DNA from: CBDFMG01 sp965221205 [NCBI: bacterium]
GTDB taxonomy: Bacteria > SM23-31
Assembly: GCA_965221205.1 (NCBI GenBank)
Contig: OZ244870.1
Location: forward strand, 310,001 to 374,000
Reading direction: 5' to 3'
DNA: 64,000 bases
Made by a program: the position numbers and the translations under genes. The notes under the pieces are model-generated. The model did not search any database, had not been told where the DNA came from, and saw nothing but the letters and a program-made list of their open reading frames with translations. Within the stretch, counting starts at the first letter, position 1, and each line of letters opens with the position of its first letter. This document shows, piece by piece, positions 1 through 7,635 of this stretch.

Positions 1-501
1 TTCTTCTTTCCATCCGACTGCACGAAGCCGGGAAACAATACCCAGCAAATCGTCGCGAAAGGCTTCCTCAGCAGTTCTTCCTGAATAGTTATGCTTGTAT
101 CCATAACCGCTTAGATTTGATGTGATGACATTTGCCTTATCGGTGCGTGCCAACGACAGACGTATCAGCGTGTTTTCCTCATCCTCGTTCAATAGTCGCG
201 GTTTAGGTGAAAGACCTGAGTCAAAAGCAAATTCAGTCAGTACGCGCAATCCGAAACCATGAATGGTCGAGATGTACGCCTGATCCAATTTCAGTGCATC
301 ATCCAAACGACCAAGATCAAGCAGCCTTGCACGTGTACGCTCACGCAGCTCAGCCGCTGCTACCTCAGTAAATGTCACCGCGACAATGCTTTCGGGTTCG
401 ACGTTACCTTTTGCTATCCAATCGCCAAGTTGCTGCTGAATGATGTAAGTCTTACCAGACCCAGCACCGGCCGGAATGATAGTTAGTGGTGGTAACGTCA
501 T
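1..501 (-). CDS. UvrD/RecB-type superfamily I helicase, N-terminal part (runs off the window)
   Basis: The minus-strand frame opens with ATG at 501 and runs off the left edge, giving about 167 residues. Residues 10-18 read PAGAGSGKT, the Walker A loop of UvrD/PcrA/RecB/AddA helicases. VAVTFTEVAAAELRERT (motif Ia type) and a STIHGFGLRVL stretch follow, both typical of AddA/RecB N-termini. The start overlaps the stop of the upstream nuclease gene (ATGA at 498-501), so the two were translationally coupled. In the AddAB/RecBCD families such a pair makes a helicase-nuclease for double-strand break processing; related pairs also occur in defence islands. The family is clear; whether it is AddA proper or a stand-alone defence helicase cannot be decided from one domain. 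Confidence 0.85.
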   Translation of the reverse strand, partial: MTLPPLTIIPAGAGSGKTYIIQQQLGDWIAKGNVEPESIVAVTFTEVAAAELRERTRARLLDLGRLDDALKLDQAYISTIHGFGLRVLTEFAFDSGLSPKPRLLNEDEENTLIRLSLARTDKANVITSNLSGYGYKHNYSGRTAEEAFRDDLLGIVSRLRAVGWKEE

Positions 502-3171
502 CCCATTTCCTCTGCTTCGCCGGGCACTGTAAATAGCGGAATCAACGGGGTGTTATCCAAAGTATACGGCTTTATGCCGGTCCGCTTATCAAAAAACAGC
601 GCATCGCCTTCACGATTAAGGTGTAGCAAGCCTTCGCGCACCTCGTTCAACCGTCTCTCAATAAGCGCGACCGCTTGACCCGCAACGCTCCCCTCCAAAG
701 CTTCCCAGTGGGGAATCCCTCTGGACTCCACAAGCACGGTGTCGGACAGCGCTGTTTGGTCGTTAAGCATGTAATAGACAATACCGGTCTGGCTTGCCGT
801 CTTTAAGTGATCGAACAACTCTCCATTTTCCGTGTCTTTTGGACCACCAGTCTGCAACATGGTCCGGTAGAGACTGGCTTGACTGTCATAACCCTTTTGC
901 ATACGCGGTTTGCGACTACTCGAACTCGATCGCTTGTAGTCCACAACCAGCAGACGGTTTTTTGCTAATCCCAGTATTACATCGGCCTGTCCATGTATTG
1001 GAATACCATTAAGGTTACCCTCCAGCCATACCTCGCTACCAAGCACATCCGCACCCAACACATCTAGCACCCCTCTCCATGCAACCGCCGCTACGATAAT
1101 TCCTGTGGCCAAGTGTTGACGCTCTACCTGCCACTGCGATGCTCTAAGAAAAGGCCCGTGCTGCCTGATTGCATTGTCGAGTAATGACTCTACCCGAGCA
1201 GAGATTTCATCTTTTCCGGGTATCGGTAATTCTTTCTGGAATAGCTCCTCAAAGACCTGGTGCGCCAATGTCCCAAGCAGCATGACGTTGGGACCTTCCG
1301 GTGCCCAGCCAAGGGGTTCTGCACCAAGCCGACGCAGCAACCAGGCCAGGCGCGAGACCATTAGTGTCTCAAGGCTACTGGGGGATTCCGGTTTTAATTG
1401 GCCTTCGGAGTCCATCCGCAATGCCAATAAATCGCGCTCAAAGTGAATGTCATTGGAAGTGATGACGCGTGGTGGCTCTGGCTCATCAAGTGCTGCTTGA
1501 GAAAGATAACGTGCCCGCGCTCTATCTGCTGCAGCATCCAGCTCCAGTAGTATGCCCTCCGTTGTGCCAAATAACTGTTGCATGAACACGATACTTTCTG
1601 AGGGCGCCTGCGCGTCACCGCTTGGATTTCGACGAGGTACCAAAAAGCTTACAAAATCTGAGACAGCCGCCAACTGGCGTTTGAAACGTGCGCGACGATG
1701 CATCAACTCATCATCAGGCGTTTCAACCGGCAAGCCCAAGTTGTAGCGGATTGCCTTCAGGTCATCGGCTACGAATACTGGAGAAGATCCTGGCACAGTG
1801 GGATAGTTACCCTTGGTAAAACTAAAGACGATCAGATGTCGGACTGACCGCCATGGTTCGTGCCCTTCCCGCCAGACCGTGATGCCTTCTAGGTTGAAAT
1901 CGGGAGATTCACCCGTCGTGATGTACCTAGGATTCACGCTGCGTCGCAGATTCAGCCAGTCAATGTCAACGGCTCCCTCCAATTGCGCACAGATACTATC
2001 TGCTGTGACCCTTGCCTGGAGGACATAACCAACAAACTCATCGCCACCATTGAGTAGTGGAATAAATAATTGCACCGCCTGAAGCAGCGTAGCTGGGGAT
2101 TCGTCACCCTCGCCAATGAGATCAAGCATTGCGCGTGCATCTTTACCAAATGAAGATAAAGGCCGGAGGCGGTAGTCCCCCCGTCCATTATGCGTTGCGC
2201 AAGTACAGCGCCATCTTCTCGAGACCAGGGCATCAGTGGCGAGGAAAGGCAAACCGCCAGCACCATAGCCGGTGCTGGTTTCTGCCGACAGTGTAGAGGA
2301 AGTGGAACAGGACTTCCCGTCCCAGATCGCGCCGCCAGCGCTCTACGGGCAACCCTGAGAGTGCCAGTCCAGCCAGTGTAAATGCGTCTTCGACGGCAAC
2401 CGAATACTCAAAGCTTTCGGGCAAAAGAAGTCCTATATCCGCGGGCTTGAGATCCGGATGCTCTTCCAGCATCGTTTGCACCATATCCGCCGCCACTTCC
2501 ACTTCTTCAAGGAAGTCTCGCGCACCGAGCCATTGAACCGTTTGATCCAATGAAACACTGCCCGTAGTGGGCAAGAAAAGCTGAGCTTGCAGTGTCGTAA
2601 GTAAGACCATTGGTCATCTTTGGTGCTTGGGTTCCGGACAGGAGCTCATTCAGCTTGGCAGCTAAATGAGAATCCGGGGATACCTTGGCGTCACCATTGA
2701 GCTTCTCAATGAGCGAAACCTGCCATCGTGTCAACGCCGGTATCTTTTTGATGTGGTATACAAATATACGCTGGACGGCATCTGCGGCATCCGCCAGGAT
2801 CATTTCTCGCACTACTGACAGGTCAGGGGGCAATTTTCCTTCCAGCATCTCAGCCAATCGAACCAGGTCATTGAGGTGTTGACGGGGCCGTTCCGCTAGA
2901 TCTCCAAAGTCCGTAATACTAAACGTAGCTGTAGGATCGGATGCTGAAATGACCTGCATAAGTGCCCCTTCAATAGCTGCGCTGGTCTCTAGTGGAGAAA
3001 CCGAAAAGCTCTCCACCCAGAACGCGTCGGACATCTCACCGAGGGCACTGTGGAGCTGTTCCTCCCAATCACCATGCCCTTGCGCGTACAAGTCTCCACT
3101 AGGGCACGCCGGACCCGGCGAGCTGCACTGCTATCAGGTACCAAAAGAAATTGTAGATATTGACCTGTCAA
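498..3171 (-). pseudogene. AddB/RecB-like PD-(D/E)XK nuclease, frameshifted
   Basis: Four minus-strand pieces in different frames read as one protein: an N-terminal piece from ATG 3171 (LQFLLVPDSSAARRVRRALV), one down from 3091, one ending near 2240 and a 584-residue C-terminal piece ending at 498. Frame changes fall near 3050, 2550 and 2240. The C-terminal piece carries the RecB-family nuclease core: GQADVILG, then LLVVDYKRS (the D-x-K) and QASLYR. The length and order, an inactive-helicase-like region followed by the nuclease, resemble AddB. No Cys cluster is visible, so the AddB iron-sulfur site is probably absent. The gene is coupled to the helicase by ATGA. As read it cannot make a full protein; three single-base errors would also explain it. 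Confidence 0.75.
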
Positions 3172-3256: not shown

Positions 3257-3460
3257 TCAAAAACACTGATACCGATCCCTGATATGGGTGTTGTAATAAG
3301 TACCCTTGGATGATGAGCACATTAACCCCTTATATATGTGCAAGGGAACATCACAGAAGTCATAACTGTTTCCTTGCTCGAAAGTAATTCGCATCTGTCG
3401 CGTAGACTGGTCATAACCAATGGCACGTATAGCACTCGATCTGACTTGGATCATCTCCAT
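3257..3460 (-). CDS. KTSC domain protein
   Basis: A small 67-residue protein. It shows the KTSC pattern: V-x-SSAIRAIGYD near the N-terminus, ITFEQGNSYDFCDVP in the middle and SSSKGTYYNTHIRDRY at the end. The domain is found alone or attached to other proteins and its function is not well established. I chose ATG 3460 because a good ribosome-binding site (GGGAGGTG) lies about seven bases upstream; the frame extends to 3469 without such support. It lies between the GHKL-nuclease gene and the AddB-like gene on the same strand. Small KTSC genes are frequent neighbours of mobile and defence genes, but a role here is inference. Confidence 0.75.
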   Translation of the reverse strand: MEMIQVRSSAIRAIGYDQSTRQMRITFEQGNSYDFCDVPLHIYKGLMCSSSKGTYYNTHIRDRYQCF

Positions 3461-3609
3461 AACTAACACCTCCCATCACTTATCCAACTGGCATTCTATA
3501 CTGACACAGCTCGAACAGATGTAAGTATGTCCGAAATACGACTCGAAAAAGTGATCTTCAAAAAGCGAAGCCTCCAAGCAAAGTTCTCGTTGGCAGGTGA
3601 GTGTAGCAA
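3461..3609. other. Short gap between KTSC and GHKL-nuclease genes
   Basis: About 150 bases without a convincing gene. It holds the KTSC ribosome-binding site. A 35-codon plus-strand frame starting at ATG 3527 overlaps the 3' end of the GHKL gene and is not credited. No hairpin terminator is evident, so read-through from the upstream genes is possible. Confidence 0.4.
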
Positions 3610-6082
3610 CTACTCGGCAGACGTAAATGCCTGAAGATACATTTCTTGTAGCTCACTTGGAACGTTGTTACTGATCTGAGATGAAACTACAGAAAGGATT
3701 TTGTCGGGCGTTTCTTGTATCCCAATCTTCTCTCCTTCGATGCTGATAAACCCGGGAATAAATACTTTCAGGCTTTCGATTGTTGCTTTTATCTGGTCCT
3801 TGGAAAGAGCCTTATCATTCGGAAGTTTGCTGTTGAGTGTTATTCGTACACTTGCGATTTCGGGTGGTTCTGTGTCTGTCTTTTGCAACTTGTAAATTGT
3901 ATATAGAAGATCCTTGATCGGCTCGATTTTGACAGCACTTTGTTGGATACCGTCGATCCATTCTTTAACCTGCATTGGCGTGTAGCACGCATCCAACAGG
4001 CTTCTCAGTCGTTTCAACCCAATTTGCTTCGGTGCGGACAGGAGCAAAAGCCGGATTAGATCTGAAGCACGTATTGCCGTTATTTTCTGTTGAGAACAAG
4101 TGACCGATATGCTGCTTTGTTCATCAGAAGCACCTTCAAAATCGATCGCTACAACAATGGCATATTGCGCGTCATAGTCTTTTTTGTGCTTATTGACAAC
4201 AGCCAAGCCGGCTGTTTTAGCTTGGATTTTCTTTTTTCCAGTGGATTTAGCGTCATATGTTAGGGAATAACTTTCATTTACATCTTGTGCACTGAAACCA
4301 AGGAAAGCAGTGGCTACTCCATCCGGCTTGCCCTTGCCTCCGATCGGTGTTGCCTCAAAGCCTAAGGCAAGCAATGCTCGGTATACCGCATCCTCCAAGC
4401 CGGTAGGATCAGCAACGGCGTCCTTCAACATCTGTGCGACAGCCGGAGAACCTTCGCGGTCGGAGAGCGAAAGTTCACGTAACGTGTTGTCGCGGCGCAG
4501 GATAATGCTGTTGACGATTGACTCATCCAAGCCAAGTTCGTATAGATGGGCCTCCGTCAATACCTCGGTGATTGCGATAAACTGCAACGGTAATTCACTT
4601 TTATACTCATCAATATAGTTCGCTACGAACGGATGCAATAAATTCATCGTGAGTTTCCCGGACTCGAGATCAAGTCTGGCAATTCGATCCGACGCGGGCA
4701 AAAACTGCCAGTCGACGTCTTTGATGAAGGACTCATCTTTGTTCAGTTCTTCCCGGAGTTCTTGTAATAACGTTTGTTTTTTTTCGAGGCGTGGCTTATT
4801 GATGAGAAGCGGATTAACAATCTCATTTTGAAAAAATTTCTCGGCAAATACGAGCAACGGGCGCTTGGAAGCTGTTAGAGAAGTCTTCGATAGCCTGTAA
4901 GATATTTGCTGTTTCTGGTTCCGTTCATTCTCTTTAGTAAAGTAGTACTTGCGGACCTCGTTATTGAACTTTTTCTTTATGTAGTCTTTTAGTTGGCGCA
5001 GCGGCGGTGACTCTTTTACAGCTTCCCTCGTCGACGTCAAGTTACTATCCAGTTCGTCTGCGTGAATAATTATTCTTGTTCGATTAAAGGCGCCGTGTGA
5101 GAATGCCTCCAGCCCAAGGAGCGGGTCGTCAATATTGATGAGTCGACCACGCACCATAAGGAAAATGCCGTAACTCCGCCCTAATCCAGTCGATTTGCCC
5201 TCGACCAACGAATCTTCGTACAGCTCAATTTCGCCGTGGACACCCTTCAGATTCTCGAAATCCAAAAAATGCTGGCCACCAACTTCTCGACACGAAATTC
5301 CATTGTGTGCTTCAGCGATTTCATCATCTTTTGCGATGATCCATTTTTTCATCAGCGGTCTATCGATCTTCGACGACTCAATCTGAACACCATTGTAATA
5401 GAGCTTAAAACCTGGGTTGAGAGGAAGTGCTGTTCGCAATACCCACTTAAGGCGCCCACCTTTAATCTCATTGGCTTTTACCTTTAGGCTTGTCAGAATA
5501 GAAAAGGTCCAGCTATCGGCTGCGTGTTGGCCGAAAAGCTCAAAGCTGAGAGACTTATTACCTCCCGAGACATAGGGAGTTAATAGCGTTTCAGCTTGCG
5601 ATTCGGTGAGTTCACGCTCATCAAGTATGAGGTCGCTGTTATCTACTGATGTCTTTGATGTTTTCGTAGTCCATAGTAACTGCAAGAAAGCGGCCATTTT
5701 TCCTAGACACGTAGGTCAGTTTGTTTGCTAGTACATATGTTGCAAGCTTGCCAATACCAAAACGCCCAATTTGCAGCCTCTTTTCATCGCGTTCTTTAGT
5801 TCGCTTGCTGGAGGACCCAATTCGCCACAAGTCTTTAAGGCCCTGCTGATCCATACCTTCACCGTTATCACAAACCCAGATGTAGGCAGAATCAACGGTC
5901 AAATCAGGCGGGACATAAACTGAAACAGAATCGGCAAATGCGTCATAGGAGTTACAAACTAGTTCTTCAAACGCCTTATTTGGACTTGAATATAAGCCTG
6001 CCGAGAAAAGCTCGATAATCCGATAACTGATTGTGACGTTGATTGTGTCAATGGTATTTCCAATTTTCTCCAGTGCATTCAT
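3610..6082 (-). pseudogene. GHKL ATPase fused to a PD-(D/E)XK nuclease, one frameshift
   Basis: Two overlapping minus-strand frames (ATG 6082 down to 5639, and 5697 down to 3610) join near 5650 into one protein of about 820 residues. The N-terminus is a GHKL (Hsp90/MutL/MORC) ATPase: EELVCNSYDA (N box), CDNGEGM (G1) and GRFGIGK (G2) within the first 125 residues. An Hsp90/MutL-like second domain follows, ending in LTSTREAVKES. Toward the C-terminus, GLEDAVYRALLALGFEATP, KGKPDG and SLTYDAKST form a PD-(D/E)XK core (E, PD and D-x-K). The architecture matches MORC/MutL-like ATPases known from restriction-modification loci. The methyltransferase stop is only 2 nt upstream. A single inserted or lost base in GACATCAGTAGATAAC breaks the frame; it may be a sequencing error, as both halves look well conserved. 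Confidence 0.75.
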
Positions 6083-6084
6083 GT

Positions 6085-7347
6085 TTATCGGTTCCCTATA
6101 ACGATAAACTCTTCGCTGTACACTTTTCTTCCACGAGCATCGGTTGAGAATTTTCCATACTTATCCCGGTACGGCGTCAATATCTTCTTGCTGATTTTAC
6201 GTTTGGTTATATTGACTCTATTGAAGCCAGCCCGAATGAGCGATTGCACGAGATGCTTTGCATTATTAACGCGAACGCCTTTGTATTCAGTATTTCCAAT
6301 AACAAATAGAGCGATACCAGATTTATTGAGCACAGAATATGTTTTCTTGGCGACCGCCTGCATATCAAGAAAATAGTCACGGACGGAACGTGCCTTAGCT
6401 CGATCAATCTCTCGCAGTCCTGCGACAACTTCCTTGCCCGATGACAACAGTTCAGGATGTTTGATTTCGAGATCTCTATCATGGTGCAAACTTCCAATAG
6501 CACCGCAACGGAGATCTCTGTAATCTTTTGCATACCCGAGCCAAAGAGAAGAAAGCTGGTGTAAGTCCGCATACTCATATGATGTGACATACGGCGGACT
6601 CGTAATAACCATGTCTGCTTTCGCGGGCCGATACTCTTTGGATAGGAAGTTTTGAGTATCAATTTTTATATTGGCACTGCCAAATGGCTCGTTCTCCAAG
6701 TTTGCCTTTATCATGAATTGACATTGTGTAAGGAATGTCTGTAAAGCGTCAGCAGGCGTTTTATTGGGATCTAGTTGCGGTTTGATAGACTTTGTAAGCC
6801 ACATGGAAGTTGGTTTCAGGATATTTGAGAATGCACAAAGAAAGAACAGCCGATAGTAACTGCGGCTGGATGTTTCTTCAGTGATTGACCATTTTAAGTG
6901 CGCAAGGGCATTGTACTGCTTCGCCTGATACCAGTACTTCAGTCGTAAACCGGTGCGCGGATACAAGTCCTCGATACGCGTCATCCAAAATCGAGAGACT
7001 ATCCCTTCCAAATATCTACTAAGCCGTGTAGTTTGATATCTATGGCTCTTGACCCTTGCTATAAGGGTCGCCACAGGGTTGTTATCGCAACCCCAAAAGT
7101 CGATGTTGTTTCGTTTCGCTTCAAATGCGGTCGTGCCACAACCACAGCAAATATCCGCGATCATGCCTACATCGTGCTCCTGTAGATTCGCATACTCCAG
7201 TGCCTTTGTTGTGATAAATGCTGGAAACTTGGCCGGATAGGAATGAATTCGATGCATTTTTAGTTCCTTTCCGGACCCAGTGTTCCAGAAAGGATCAATC
7301 TCGACTTTGTCGAAATCGAATGTGTCAAAATTTTCGATAAGAATCAT
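6085..7347 (-). CDS. Site-specific DNA methyltransferase (SPPY type)
   Basis: About 420 residues. Motif I is ADICCGCGTTAFEAK (residues about 65-79), followed by GCDNNPVA, the usual acidic SAM-ribose region. The catalytic motif IV is TSPPY near residue 250; SPPY is typical of N4-cytosine and some N6-adenine methylases. A leading MHRIHSYPAKFP segment is a hallmark of this branch, where the protein begins with a (H/R)-x-YPAK motif before motif I. ATG 7347 overlaps the stop of a small upstream frame (TGATG); a TTG three bases earlier is an alternative. It is intact, while the presumed partner nuclease downstream is frameshifted. Role inferred: modification enzyme protecting host DNA from the GHKL-nuclease. 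Confidence 0.88.
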   Translation of the reverse strand: MILIENFDTFDFDKVEIDPFWNTGSGKELKMHRIHSYPAKFPAFITTKALEYANLQEHDVGMIADICCGCGTTAFEAKRNNIDFWGCDNNPVATLIARVKSHRYQTTRLSRYLEGIVSRFWMTRIEDLYPRTGLRLKYWYQAKQYNALAHLKWSITEETSSRSYYRLFFLCAFSNILKPTSMWLTKSIKPQLDPNKTPADALQTFLTQCQFMIKANLENEPFGSANIKIDTQNFLSKEYRPAKADMVITSPPYVTSYEYADLHQLSSLWLGYAKDYRDLRCGAIGSLHHDRDLEIKHPELLSSGKEVVAGLREIDRAKARSVRDYFLDMQAVAKKTYSVLNKSGIALFVIGNTEYKGVRVNNAKHLVQSLIRAGFNRVNITKRKISKKILTPYRDKYGKFSTDARGRKVYSEEFIVIGNR

Positions 7348-7613
7348 CAATTAAGCCCTGTTTTTAATTTTTCCCTTTTCTGCAAGCAGCCTAAAGAGCT
7401 AGTTCCCACCGACCTCCTGCAGAACAGCAGGTGCCGGTTTGACGGATTCTGATGCTTGCTTGGTCTGAGAACCAAAGACGTTGACATGATTGCGACCGGC
7501 TCAGGAGGGTGGGAAACATCTGAAATGGCGTGGAATTGGCTCAGTGAAGTCACAGGAGTTGTTTCAGACTCAGAAATAACAGATTTTAGTTGGTCCTTAA
7601 ATATATCAGTCAT
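7347..7613 (-). pseudogene. Small ORF upstream of the methyltransferase, probably frameshifted
   Basis: A short minus-strand frame beginning MTDIFKDQLKSVISES at ATG 7613. Its stop overlaps the methyltransferase start (TGATG). After about residue 40 (around position 7500) the reading becomes unlike a protein, while the neighbouring frame gives GRNHVNVFGSQTKQASESVK and a stop at 7399. That suggests one frameshift within a protein of roughly 70 residues. I do not recognise it. As the first cistron of a restriction-modification operon it could be a regulator, but no helix-turn-helix is visible. Low confidence that it is translated. Confidence 0.35.
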
Positions 7614-7626
7614 GGGTTTGTGTTCC

Positions 7627-7635
7627 ATTATACCA
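7627..7635 (-). promoter_or_regulatory. Extended -10 promoter of the restriction-modification operon
   Basis: Read on the minus strand the site is TGGTATAAT, a perfect extended -10 (TGnTATAAT). No good -35 is visible, which is normal for extended -10 promoters. Transcription would begin near 7620, only a few bases before ATG 7613, so the first ORF would be nearly leaderless. It overlaps the first ATG of the longer frame at 7628, which argues against that start. Confidence 0.5.

What the first reader, a model, noticed from the sequence alone, without database searches (positions are those of the whole stretch)
3610..7635. Methyltransferase paired with a GHKL ATPase-PD-(D/E)XK fusion
Seen: an SPPY-type DNA methylase is followed two bases later by a protein with full GHKL motifs (N box, DNGEGM, GRFGIGK) and a C-terminal PD-(D/E)XK core (GKPDG, YDAKST). 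Known: MORC/MutL-like ATPases have been linked to restriction-modification loci. Inferred: this is a restriction-modification-like defence cassette in which an Hsp90/MutL-type clamp controls the nuclease. The fused arrangement and the KTSC/helicase neighbours may be new.
Basis: partly seen in the sequence, partly recalled or inferred. Interest (0 to 1): 0.75.

Follow-up and report, generated by a model that had tools for sequence, protein, structure and literature searches.

The report
Methylase plus ATP-clamp restriction enzyme
A DNA-marking enzyme sits next to a DNA-cutting enzyme that carries its own Hsp90/MORC-like ATP engine, probably a two-gene defence against foreign DNA with relatives in many bacteria and archaea, although in this genome copy the cutter gene is broken by a frameshift.

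Summary
An SPPY DNA methyltransferase (7347-6085, minus strand) is followed after two bases by a gene for a GHKL ATPase with an S5-type middle domain and a PD-(D/E)XK nuclease. Here that gene is split between two frames (6082-5639, 5697-3610).

Of 86 related loci examined, 79 hold the fusion as one open frame; tree rows fall under 24 phylum labels, archaea included. ATPase and nuclease residues are near-invariant. A methylase-profile match is the direct neighbour in 71 of 86; of the other 15, seven have one farther off, two a C5 methylase, three end at a contig edge, three have none beside them. Gene order changed at least five times on the tree.

The nuclease is FokI/HindIII-like (Z 15.1, 13.9); in an intact relative the ATPase part ranks MORC3 first (Z 21.5), Hsp90 close behind. 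Its nuclease is not detectably related to that of the BbrUII/HgiDII-type GHKL fusion compared here. Best reading: a two-gene restriction-modification system with an ATP-gated nuclease; activity untested. MORC-like ATPases in restriction loci have been known since 2008, so: new variant of a known kind. KTSC is not part of the set; a helicase accompanies 11 of 86 relatives, not this copy.

The parts
6085..7347 (-). DNA methyltransferase, amino type, motif I (ICCGCG) before motif IV (SPPY), 420 aa; probably m4C or m6A
   Evidence: PF01555 E 3.6e-9; PADLOC MTase_II E 4.7e-31; 45% identity to an Allorhizobium plasmid MTase
5648..6082 (-). GHKL (Bergerat) ATPase domain, residues 1-145 of the read-through protein
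   Evidence: HATPase_c_3 E 2.2e-22; motifs in 79-80 of 80 aligned proteins
5639..5697 (-). overlap of the two reading frames: frameshift inside the ATPase-nuclease gene in this sequence
   Evidence: one open frame in 79 of 86 related loci
3610..5697 (-). second-frame ORF carrying the S5, linker, nuclease and C-terminal parts
   Evidence: model of 3613-5649 with mean pLDDT 87.4
4939..5547 (-). S5/transducer (MORC/Hsp90-type middle) domain, approximate bounds
   Evidence: window model: MORC3 and Hsp90 chains at Z 9.0; L004 model: MORC3 Z 21.5 over ATPase plus S5; coordinates
3955..4452 (-). PD-(D/E)XK nuclease domain, FokI/HindIII-like; E at 4393-4395, D at 4321-4323, D-A-K at 4246-4254
   Evidence: FokI Z 15.1, HindIII Z 13.9; HindIII by family profile E 3.7e-4; residues
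3709..3930 (-). C-terminal winged-helix-like segment, possible DNA-binding part
   Evidence: VIA Z 7.3-9.4 to several winged-helix chains, near the level that the tool calls common; coordinates
7347..7628 (-). 93-aa ORF just upstream of the MTase, of unknown meaning; may not be a gene
   Evidence: ORF list only

Best explanation
A two-gene restriction-modification system. The methyltransferase marks host sites. The partner is a restriction enzyme built of a MORC/Hsp90-like GHKL-S5 ATPase, a linker, a FokI/HindIII-type nuclease and a C-terminal winged-helix-like part. Shown by sequence and models: domain make-up, conservation of both active sites, genetic linkage. Inferred: the enzyme cuts DNA lacking the mark; ATP binding closes an N-terminal dimer clamp around DNA, which brings two FokI-like nuclease domains together so that both strands are cut; the winged helix or linker reads the site. 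My odds: RM-type defence about 0.8; ATP gating of the nuclease about 0.6; clamp-driven pairing of the nuclease domains about 0.4; winged helix as site reader about 0.3. In this window the enzyme gene is frameshifted, so this copy may be inactive, or the break may be an assembly error.
For: Linkage: an MTase-profile match is the direct neighbour in 71 of 86 loci, 65 of them above 200 bits, against 8 of 865 non-adjacent genes; 66 on the same strand, 38 of those overlapping or abutting and 25 within 60 bp. Profile-free check: SPPY in 68 of 117 adjacent genes of at least 200 aa against 9 of 488 others, Fisher p 1.6e-47, which treats related loci as independent. MTase upstream or downstream, fewest changes of order 5 over 69 labelled rows. 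The methylase class can differ while the fusion stays: CcrM-like in L005, C5 beside or near it in L090 and L010, short amino-MTases on the opposite strand in archaeal L031, L034, L039. Distances of MTase and fusion correlate over 61 pairs, r 0.66, best of 1000 permutations 0.12; shared descent alone could give this. Active sites kept. Nuclease: Foldseek AspBHI, HindIII, FokI at E 3.3e-4 to 6.5e-4; FokI Z 15.1, HindIII Z 13.9; HindIII by family profile E 3.7e-4 with its D-A-K aligned, next best matches being nucleoproteins at E 0.32 or worse; Mrr_cat in 29, FokI_cleav_dom in 13, RE_HindIII in 2 of 68 members at E up to 1. ATPase-S5 of L004: MORC3 first, Z 21.5. Some relatives lie beside other defence genes: HmaB/HmaC in L047, type III methylase in L020, type I HsdM in L051.
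Against: No activity, target base, site or ATP dependence was tested. The window gene is broken. The window's own nuclease stretch matches none of Mrr_cat, FokI or HindIII in Pfam (part A); its case rests on the model and on relatives. L002, L030 and L045 have no MTase of this profile next to the fusion. The nuclease also resembles modification-dependent enzymes (AspBHI, MspJI). No domain of the fusion tracked a part of the MTase. The MORC3 rank is not clear-cut: MORC4 is tied and SMCHD1, MORC2 and Hsp90 chains are about one Z unit behind. No dimer was modelled.
Confidence: 0.7

Rival explanations
1. Modification-dependent (type IV-like) restriction: the Mrr/AspBHI/MspJI-like nuclease attacks DNA with foreign modification, and the linked methylase has another role.
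For: AspBHI is Foldseek rank 1 and MspJI rank 7; Mrr_cat is the commonest Pfam match, 29 of 68.
Against: VIA puts FokI and HindIII above AspBHI (15.1 and 13.9 against 9.0); a closely linked MTase is what protection of self would need. No base-reading domain such as SRA was matched in the window ORFs or the four relatives scanned whole.
Confidence: 0.12
2. Not classical site restriction but infection-triggered defence: the GHKL clamp senses some other feature of invading DNA, and the methylase only protects the host.
For: VcSduA, a GHKL-DUF4263 fusion for which the passages I saw name no methylase partner, protects against phage and needs both active sites (PMC12137116, passages).
Against: The nuclease is not detectably related to that of the BbrUII-type protein L111, and PhiR44_1 paraMORC3 aligns only over ATPase and S5; VcSduA itself was not compared. 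Methylase linkage is nearly general here.
Confidence: 0.15
3. A repair or recombination enzyme of MutL/MutH kind.
For: The N-terminal part matches MutL models below cut-off (best E 5.6e-7).
Against: Rare and patchy: 3 of 288 genomes in one phylum sample and 1 of 299 in another, both counts including genomes from which known loci came; present on IMG/VR viral contigs; neighbour is a DNA methylase.
Confidence: 0.04
4. In this window a dead remnant: the fusion gene is a pseudogene and only the methylase works. This concerns the copy, not the family, and can be true together with the best explanation.
For: Frameshift at 5639-5697.
Against: The AddB-like gene at 498-3091 is also broken into three frames, so assembly indels are possible; the three nuclease codons checked are intact.
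Confidence: 0.45

Closest known systems
BbrUII/HgiDII family restriction enzymes (NCBIfam NF050001); the protein annotated paraMORC3 in Escherichia phage PhiR44_1 is 39% identical over nearly full length to member L111
   Same: N-terminal GHKL ATPase with an alignable S5 region, a further C-terminal part, next to a DNA methylase
   Different: Nuclease profile shows no relation to L111 (probability 0.4%); a C5 methylase lies next to L111 (over the cut-off) and L113 (below it) and M.HgiDII and M.BbrUII are m5C enzymes (PMC5867850, passages), not SPPY amino-MTases; window ORF scores 67.9 of the 550 bits required. Neighbours of L112 were not scanned
VcSduA, GHKL-Shedu type I-D, said there to resemble paraMORC3 (PMC12137116, passages)
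   Same: GHKL ATPase plus C-terminal PD-(D/E)XK; tested anti-phage activity needing both
   Different: DUF4263 nuclease, for which no member scanned gave a match; no methylase named in the passages seen. Its sequence was not compared
MORC and paraMORC1-5 of RM loci (PMC2292703, parts 1-3 of 4)
   Same: GHKL-S5 ATPases in restriction loci; paraMORC3 there has a fused RE-fold domain; one of the paper's operon types has an SFII helicase with a DThhQXuRhFG motif, which I take to be the Z1 kind (recalled); Z1 helicases recur near the fusion in 11 of 86 loci
   Different: Strict MORC S5 motif in 0 of 80; whether any of these proteins was among the paper's paraMORC3 set could not be checked
FokI and HindIII (type II restriction enzymes)
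   Same: Nuclease domain fold and D-A-K or D-x-K type site
   Different: Neither has an ATPase domain (recalled)
HEF_HK/Response_reg_2 two-component-like elements of RM loci (PMC8011034, parts 1-2 of 7 and passages)
   Same: Similar layout: a protein with HATPase_c_3 and HATPase_c domains plus a second gene follow the fusion in L026 and L037; the Allorhizobium MTase is followed by related genes (33% and 20% identity)
   Different: Neither HEF_HK nor Response_reg_2 was matched in L026 or L037 (the last two rang nowhere, controls included), so membership is not shown

Membership tests
Type II restriction-modification system | linked genes for a DNA methylase and a restriction nuclease | tested here: met
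   71 of 86 loci, 66 of 86 by motif alone; nuclease fold and motif
Type II restriction-modification system | both enzymes act on the same site, cleavage blocked by methylation | not testable with these tools
   needs biochemistry or a methylome
BbrUII/HgiDII family (NF050001) | curated score cut-off of 550 bits | tested here: not met
   67.9 bits for the window N-terminal ORF; 66.5, 78.7, 50.4 and 53.0 for four relatives; 61.3 and 58.8 in the genomes of L049 and L013
BbrUII/HgiDII family (NF050001) | related C-terminal nuclease | tested here: not met
   hhalign of nuclease profile A6 against L111: probability 0.4%, aligned outside its C-terminal part
Shedu type I-D / VcSduA | DUF4263 nuclease domain | tested here: inconclusive
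   no DUF4263 match in the window ORFs, in 4 relatives scanned whole, or in the 25 of 32 families shown for 68 nuclease stretches; but the model also stayed silent on L092 and L111, so its power is unsure
MORC (sensu PMC2292703) | GhXhhpXXRhl motif in S5 | tested here: not met
   0 of 80 strict; 61 of 80 with a looser pattern of my own
paraMORC-like GHKL-S5 ATPase | intact GHKL motifs plus S5 domain without the strict MORC motif | tested here: met
FokI/HindIII-type PD-(D/E)XK nuclease | core fold with PD...(D/E)xK site | tested here: met
   Z 15.1 and 13.9; HindIII E 3.7e-4; [DE]611 and K613 in 80 of 80
alpha-class amino-methyltransferase | motif I before motif IV, SPPY | tested here: met
   by pattern, motif I before IV in 64 of 65 seed sequences; the odd one is a wrongly taken non-MTase
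HEF_HK/Response_reg_2 elements (accessory genes of L026, L037) | PF19191 and PF19192 domains | tested here: inconclusive
   no match for L026 proteins nor in either genome, but the controls rang nowhere either

The most novel reading that the evidence does not exclude
A separate, widespread type of ATP-dependent restriction enzyme without helicase or translocase in its own chain: a MORC-like clamp whose ATP-driven closure pairs two FokI-like nuclease domains on unmethylated DNA, with interchangeable methylases and an optional Z1-helicase module.
Probability: 0.35. Interest if true: 0.8.

Novelty: new variant of a known kind. Interest (0 to 1): 0.55.

Why it matters
Prokaryotic MORC-like ATPases were placed in restriction loci in 2008 with a DNA-looping role proposed (PMC2292703); I found no test of it for this kind in the library searched. 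This family offers a compact two-gene case in which a MORC/Hsp90-like engine and a FokI-type nuclease are one chain, conserved in bacteria and archaea and present on viral contigs. It would make the question of what such a clamp does to DNA testable with one enzyme, one methylase and ATP, and an ATP-switchable FokI-like nuclease would interest enzymologists.

Tried and rejected
Own genome: none is held. Single-sequence scans found nothing for the C-terminal ORF in genome contigs or for the MTase in viral contigs; the N-terminal ORF and the alignment A2 then worked. Host of the window: GyrA matches up to 64% in genomes of the phylum of L073 (Neomarinimicrobiota); too distant to name the host, so none is claimed. 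Domain-by-domain covariation of MTase and fusion to find the site-reading part: partial correlations from -0.15 to 0.18, no clear signal. PDB by sequence: no match at E 0.01 for the read-through protein; with the whole-family profile only Hsp90 among the 60 rows shown of 156. Plasmid and phage records: with L004 and L062 as queries at E 1e-10 the only record was the Salarchaeum plasmid, partial match, and none among phages for L004. L002 from that plasmid is a very long branch and was a seed of the profile, so its place in the family is weak. NCBIfam scan of all of A5 was too large.

Literature: the listings (at most 20 papers each, titles and abstract starts) showed no paper on a GHKL-FokI-like fusion paired with an amino-MTase. 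The library is open-access only; REBASE was not searchable. Seen of papers: PMC2292703 parts 1-3 of 4; PMC8011034 parts 1-2 of 7 and passages; PMC12137116 passages; PMC10855626 outline with abstract, section 2.1 and passages; PMC5867850, PMC4618763, PMC13092281 and PMC7824862 passages; PMC10853773 search for four words, none found. PMC3815753 and PMC11805627 are not held.

Considered and rejected: that the fused arrangement itself is new (PMC2292703); that the family is BbrUII (cut-off and nuclease not met); that the KTSC gene belongs (no match in 86 loci); that the accessory genes of L026 and L037 are proven HEF_HK/Response_reg_2.

Limits of the counts: loci were found by GHKL motif patterns and the best 80 of 139 confirmed matches were kept. 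L007-L009 repeat L004-L006 and were dropped. Genes were called by a greedy longest-ORF script, so neighbour positions are approximate. The MTase profile was trained on adjacent SPPY genes, so one search is partly circular; one search is the motif-only check. One of its 65 seeds (L091, gene 0) is not an MTase by eye; another is the window's own MTase. L074 and L057 have identical fusion proteins. Loci L002, L004, L005 and L006 are seeds of the fusion profile. The tree is a quick one.
Full report
What is there. On the minus strand of the window an amino-methyltransferase gene (7347-6085) is followed after two bases by a gene whose product starts with a GHKL ATPase. The second gene is read in two frames, 6082-5639 and 5697-3610, which overlap at 5639-5697. 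Read through at protein level it is 824 aa. Downstream lie a KTSC gene (3281-3472) and a broken AddB/RecC-like gene (498-3091); upstream is a gene that looks like ribosomal protein L9 (8274-7831, by eye). No helicase domain was matched in the neighbours scanned.

Relatives. Three IMG/VR contigs carry open fusions of 842-874 aa with an MTase next door. A motif-pattern scan of one genome per species gave 139 confirmed relatives, of which the best 80 were kept. I examined 86 loci: those 80, five viral contigs (L004-L006, L010, L011) and one archaeal plasmid (L002). In 79 of them the fusion is one open frame of 773-908 aa; four are broken or short and three are cut by a contig end. An alignment of 80 proteins, the window's read-through among them, shows the GHKL motif residues in 79-80, the nuclease Glu in 78, the Asp in 74 (Glu in the other 6) and the [DE]xK pair in 80. 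In a quick tree of those 80, rows fall under 24 phylum labels, six rows having none; the labels need 43 changes where 23 is the least possible, so transfer between lineages is likely but not proven. The window groups with Kiritimatiellales, Verrucomicrobia, Methanoperedens and Clostridia rows and one viral contig, best identity 62%.

Pairing. With an MTase profile, 71 of 86 loci have a match as direct neighbour, 65 above 200 bits; among non-adjacent genes 8 of 865 reach 200 bits. That profile was trained on adjacent genes, so I repeated the count by motif alone: SPPY occurs in 68 of 117 adjacent genes of at least 200 aa and in 9 of 488 others, and 66 of 86 loci have one. Of the 15 loci without an adjacent profile match, four have it two genes away (L042, L070, L084, L085), three farther off (L050, L078, L079), two have a C5 methylase adjacent or two genes away (L090, L010), three end at a contig edge (L011, L055, L076), and L002, L030 and L045 have no such gene beside the fusion. 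L045 follows HsdM- and HsdS-like genes (by eye) and L002 has another N6_N4 methylase about 3 kb away. Among the 71, six are weak: L005 is CcrM-like, L027 is cut by the contig end, L072 is broken, and L031, L034 and L039 are short amino-MTases on the opposite strand (L034 and L039 placed by sequence, L031 by coordinates only). The fewest changes of gene order on the tree are five, over 69 labelled rows.

Nuclease and ATPase. The window's own C-terminal part was modelled with mean pLDDT 87.4 and pTM 0.65, the intact relative L004 with 86.2 and 0.66. Foldseek puts AspBHI, HindIII and FokI first, E 3.3e-4 to 6.5e-4. VIA-align gives FokI Z 15.1 (147 residues, 2.4 A) and HindIII Z 13.9 (159 residues, 2.9 A) over model residues around 400-573. 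A profile of the nuclease stretch finds HindIII by sequence at E 3.7e-4 with the D-A-K aligned; the next matches are nucleoproteins at E 0.32 or worse. Mrr_cat matches 29, FokI_cleav_dom 13 and RE_HindIII 2 of 68 members at E up to 1, while the window's own stretch matches none of them. For ATPase plus S5 of L004 MORC3 ranks first (Z 21.5, 307 residues, 3.7 A), MORC4 is tied, SMCHD1, MORC2 and Hsp90 chains follow at about one unit less. A C-terminal segment resembles winged helices at Z 7.3-9.4, near the level that the tool calls common.

How it probably works. The reading that fits best is restriction-modification: the methylase marks self, the fused enzyme cuts unmarked DNA. FokI cleavage domains must pair to cut both strands and GHKL proteins dimerise on binding ATP (both recalled), so ATP-driven clamp closure could be what pairs the nuclease domains. 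This last step is inference. M.DraR1, an alpha-class SPPY methylase of Deinococcus, makes m4C (PMC10855626, abstract and section 2.1); that supports m4C as a guess for the window's methylase, nothing more. I did not show that the Deinococcus plasmid hit is M.DraR1.

Comparison. PMC2292703 described MORC and paraMORC ATPases in RM loci, one family fused to an RE-fold domain. PMC12137116 showed that a GHKL-DUF4263 fusion stops phage and needs both active sites (passages). A phage protein annotated paraMORC3 and a BbrUII-family protein are 39% identical, and L111 and L113 sit beside C5 methylases (L113 is below the family cut-off). The present family shares the ATPase-S5 part with them (probability 98%, columns 25-410 only), but its nuclease does not align with that of L111, its partner is mostly an SPPY amino-MTase, and it fails the BbrUII cut-off where scored. 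No Pfam, NCBIfam, PADLOC or PHROGs model covered the whole fusion in the proteins scanned.

Accessory genes. A Z1-type helicase lies within the fetched flanks of 11 of 86 loci: within three genes of the fusion in nine, six and eight genes away in L065 and L079, on the opposite strand in L050 and L091; a small partner is found in seven. Z1 was matched by Pfam in L021 and L057 only, the rest by similarity to L021. A double-HATPase protein and a further gene follow in L026 and L037; the expected HEF_HK and Response_reg_2 domains were not matched. HsdS-like genes (named by eye; matched by similarity to that of L045) precede the fusion by one or two genes in five loci, overlapping its start by 4 and 1 bases in L054 and L056; the L056 match is weak (E 5e-7). 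KTSC was found in none of the 86 loci.

Verdict. The general idea is known; the nuclease type, the methylase partner and the breadth make it a distinct variant. The window copy is frameshifted.

Noticed in passing
window 498-3091 (-): AddB/RecC-like gene with a C-terminal PDDEXK_1 domain, split into three overlapping frames; local G+C about 0.53 against 0.43 for the window.
   Followed up: partly
window 3281-3472 (-): Small KTSC-domain gene (PF13619 E 1.4e-19) downstream of the cassette; not found in any of 86 related loci.
   Followed up: yes
L045, L051, L054, L056, L058: HsdS-like gene one or two genes upstream of the fusion; in L054 and L056 the genes overlap by 4 and 1 bases, hinting at a shared operon with type I RM parts (L056 match weak).
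   Followed up: partly
L021 9472-11792, L022, L028, L057, L067, L091 and others: Z1-type helicase, often with a roughly 150-aa partner, recurs near the fusion in 11 of 86 loci, with either gene order.
   Followed up: partly
L026 9468-12925, L037: MTase, GHKL-nuclease fusion, double-HATPase protein and a further gene in one row, related to the genes after the Allorhizobium MTase in L003; HEF_HK and Response_reg_2 not matched.
   Followed up: partly
L092 4028-5986: Phage PhiR44_1 'paraMORC3' next to Dcm is 39% identical to a BbrUII-family protein, so the two names overlap.
   Followed up: partly
L004 8850-11933: Viral contig carries a second RM-like set (C5 MTase-like, nuclease-like and Vsr-like genes, named by eye) after the cassette.
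   Followed up: no
L047 767-6970: HmaB and HmaC defence genes directly upstream of the fusion.
   Followed up: no
L001 4786-6849: Priestia plasmid restriction endonuclease matches the nuclease domain (32% over 131 query residues) but has winged-helix matches and no ATPase match.
   Followed up: no
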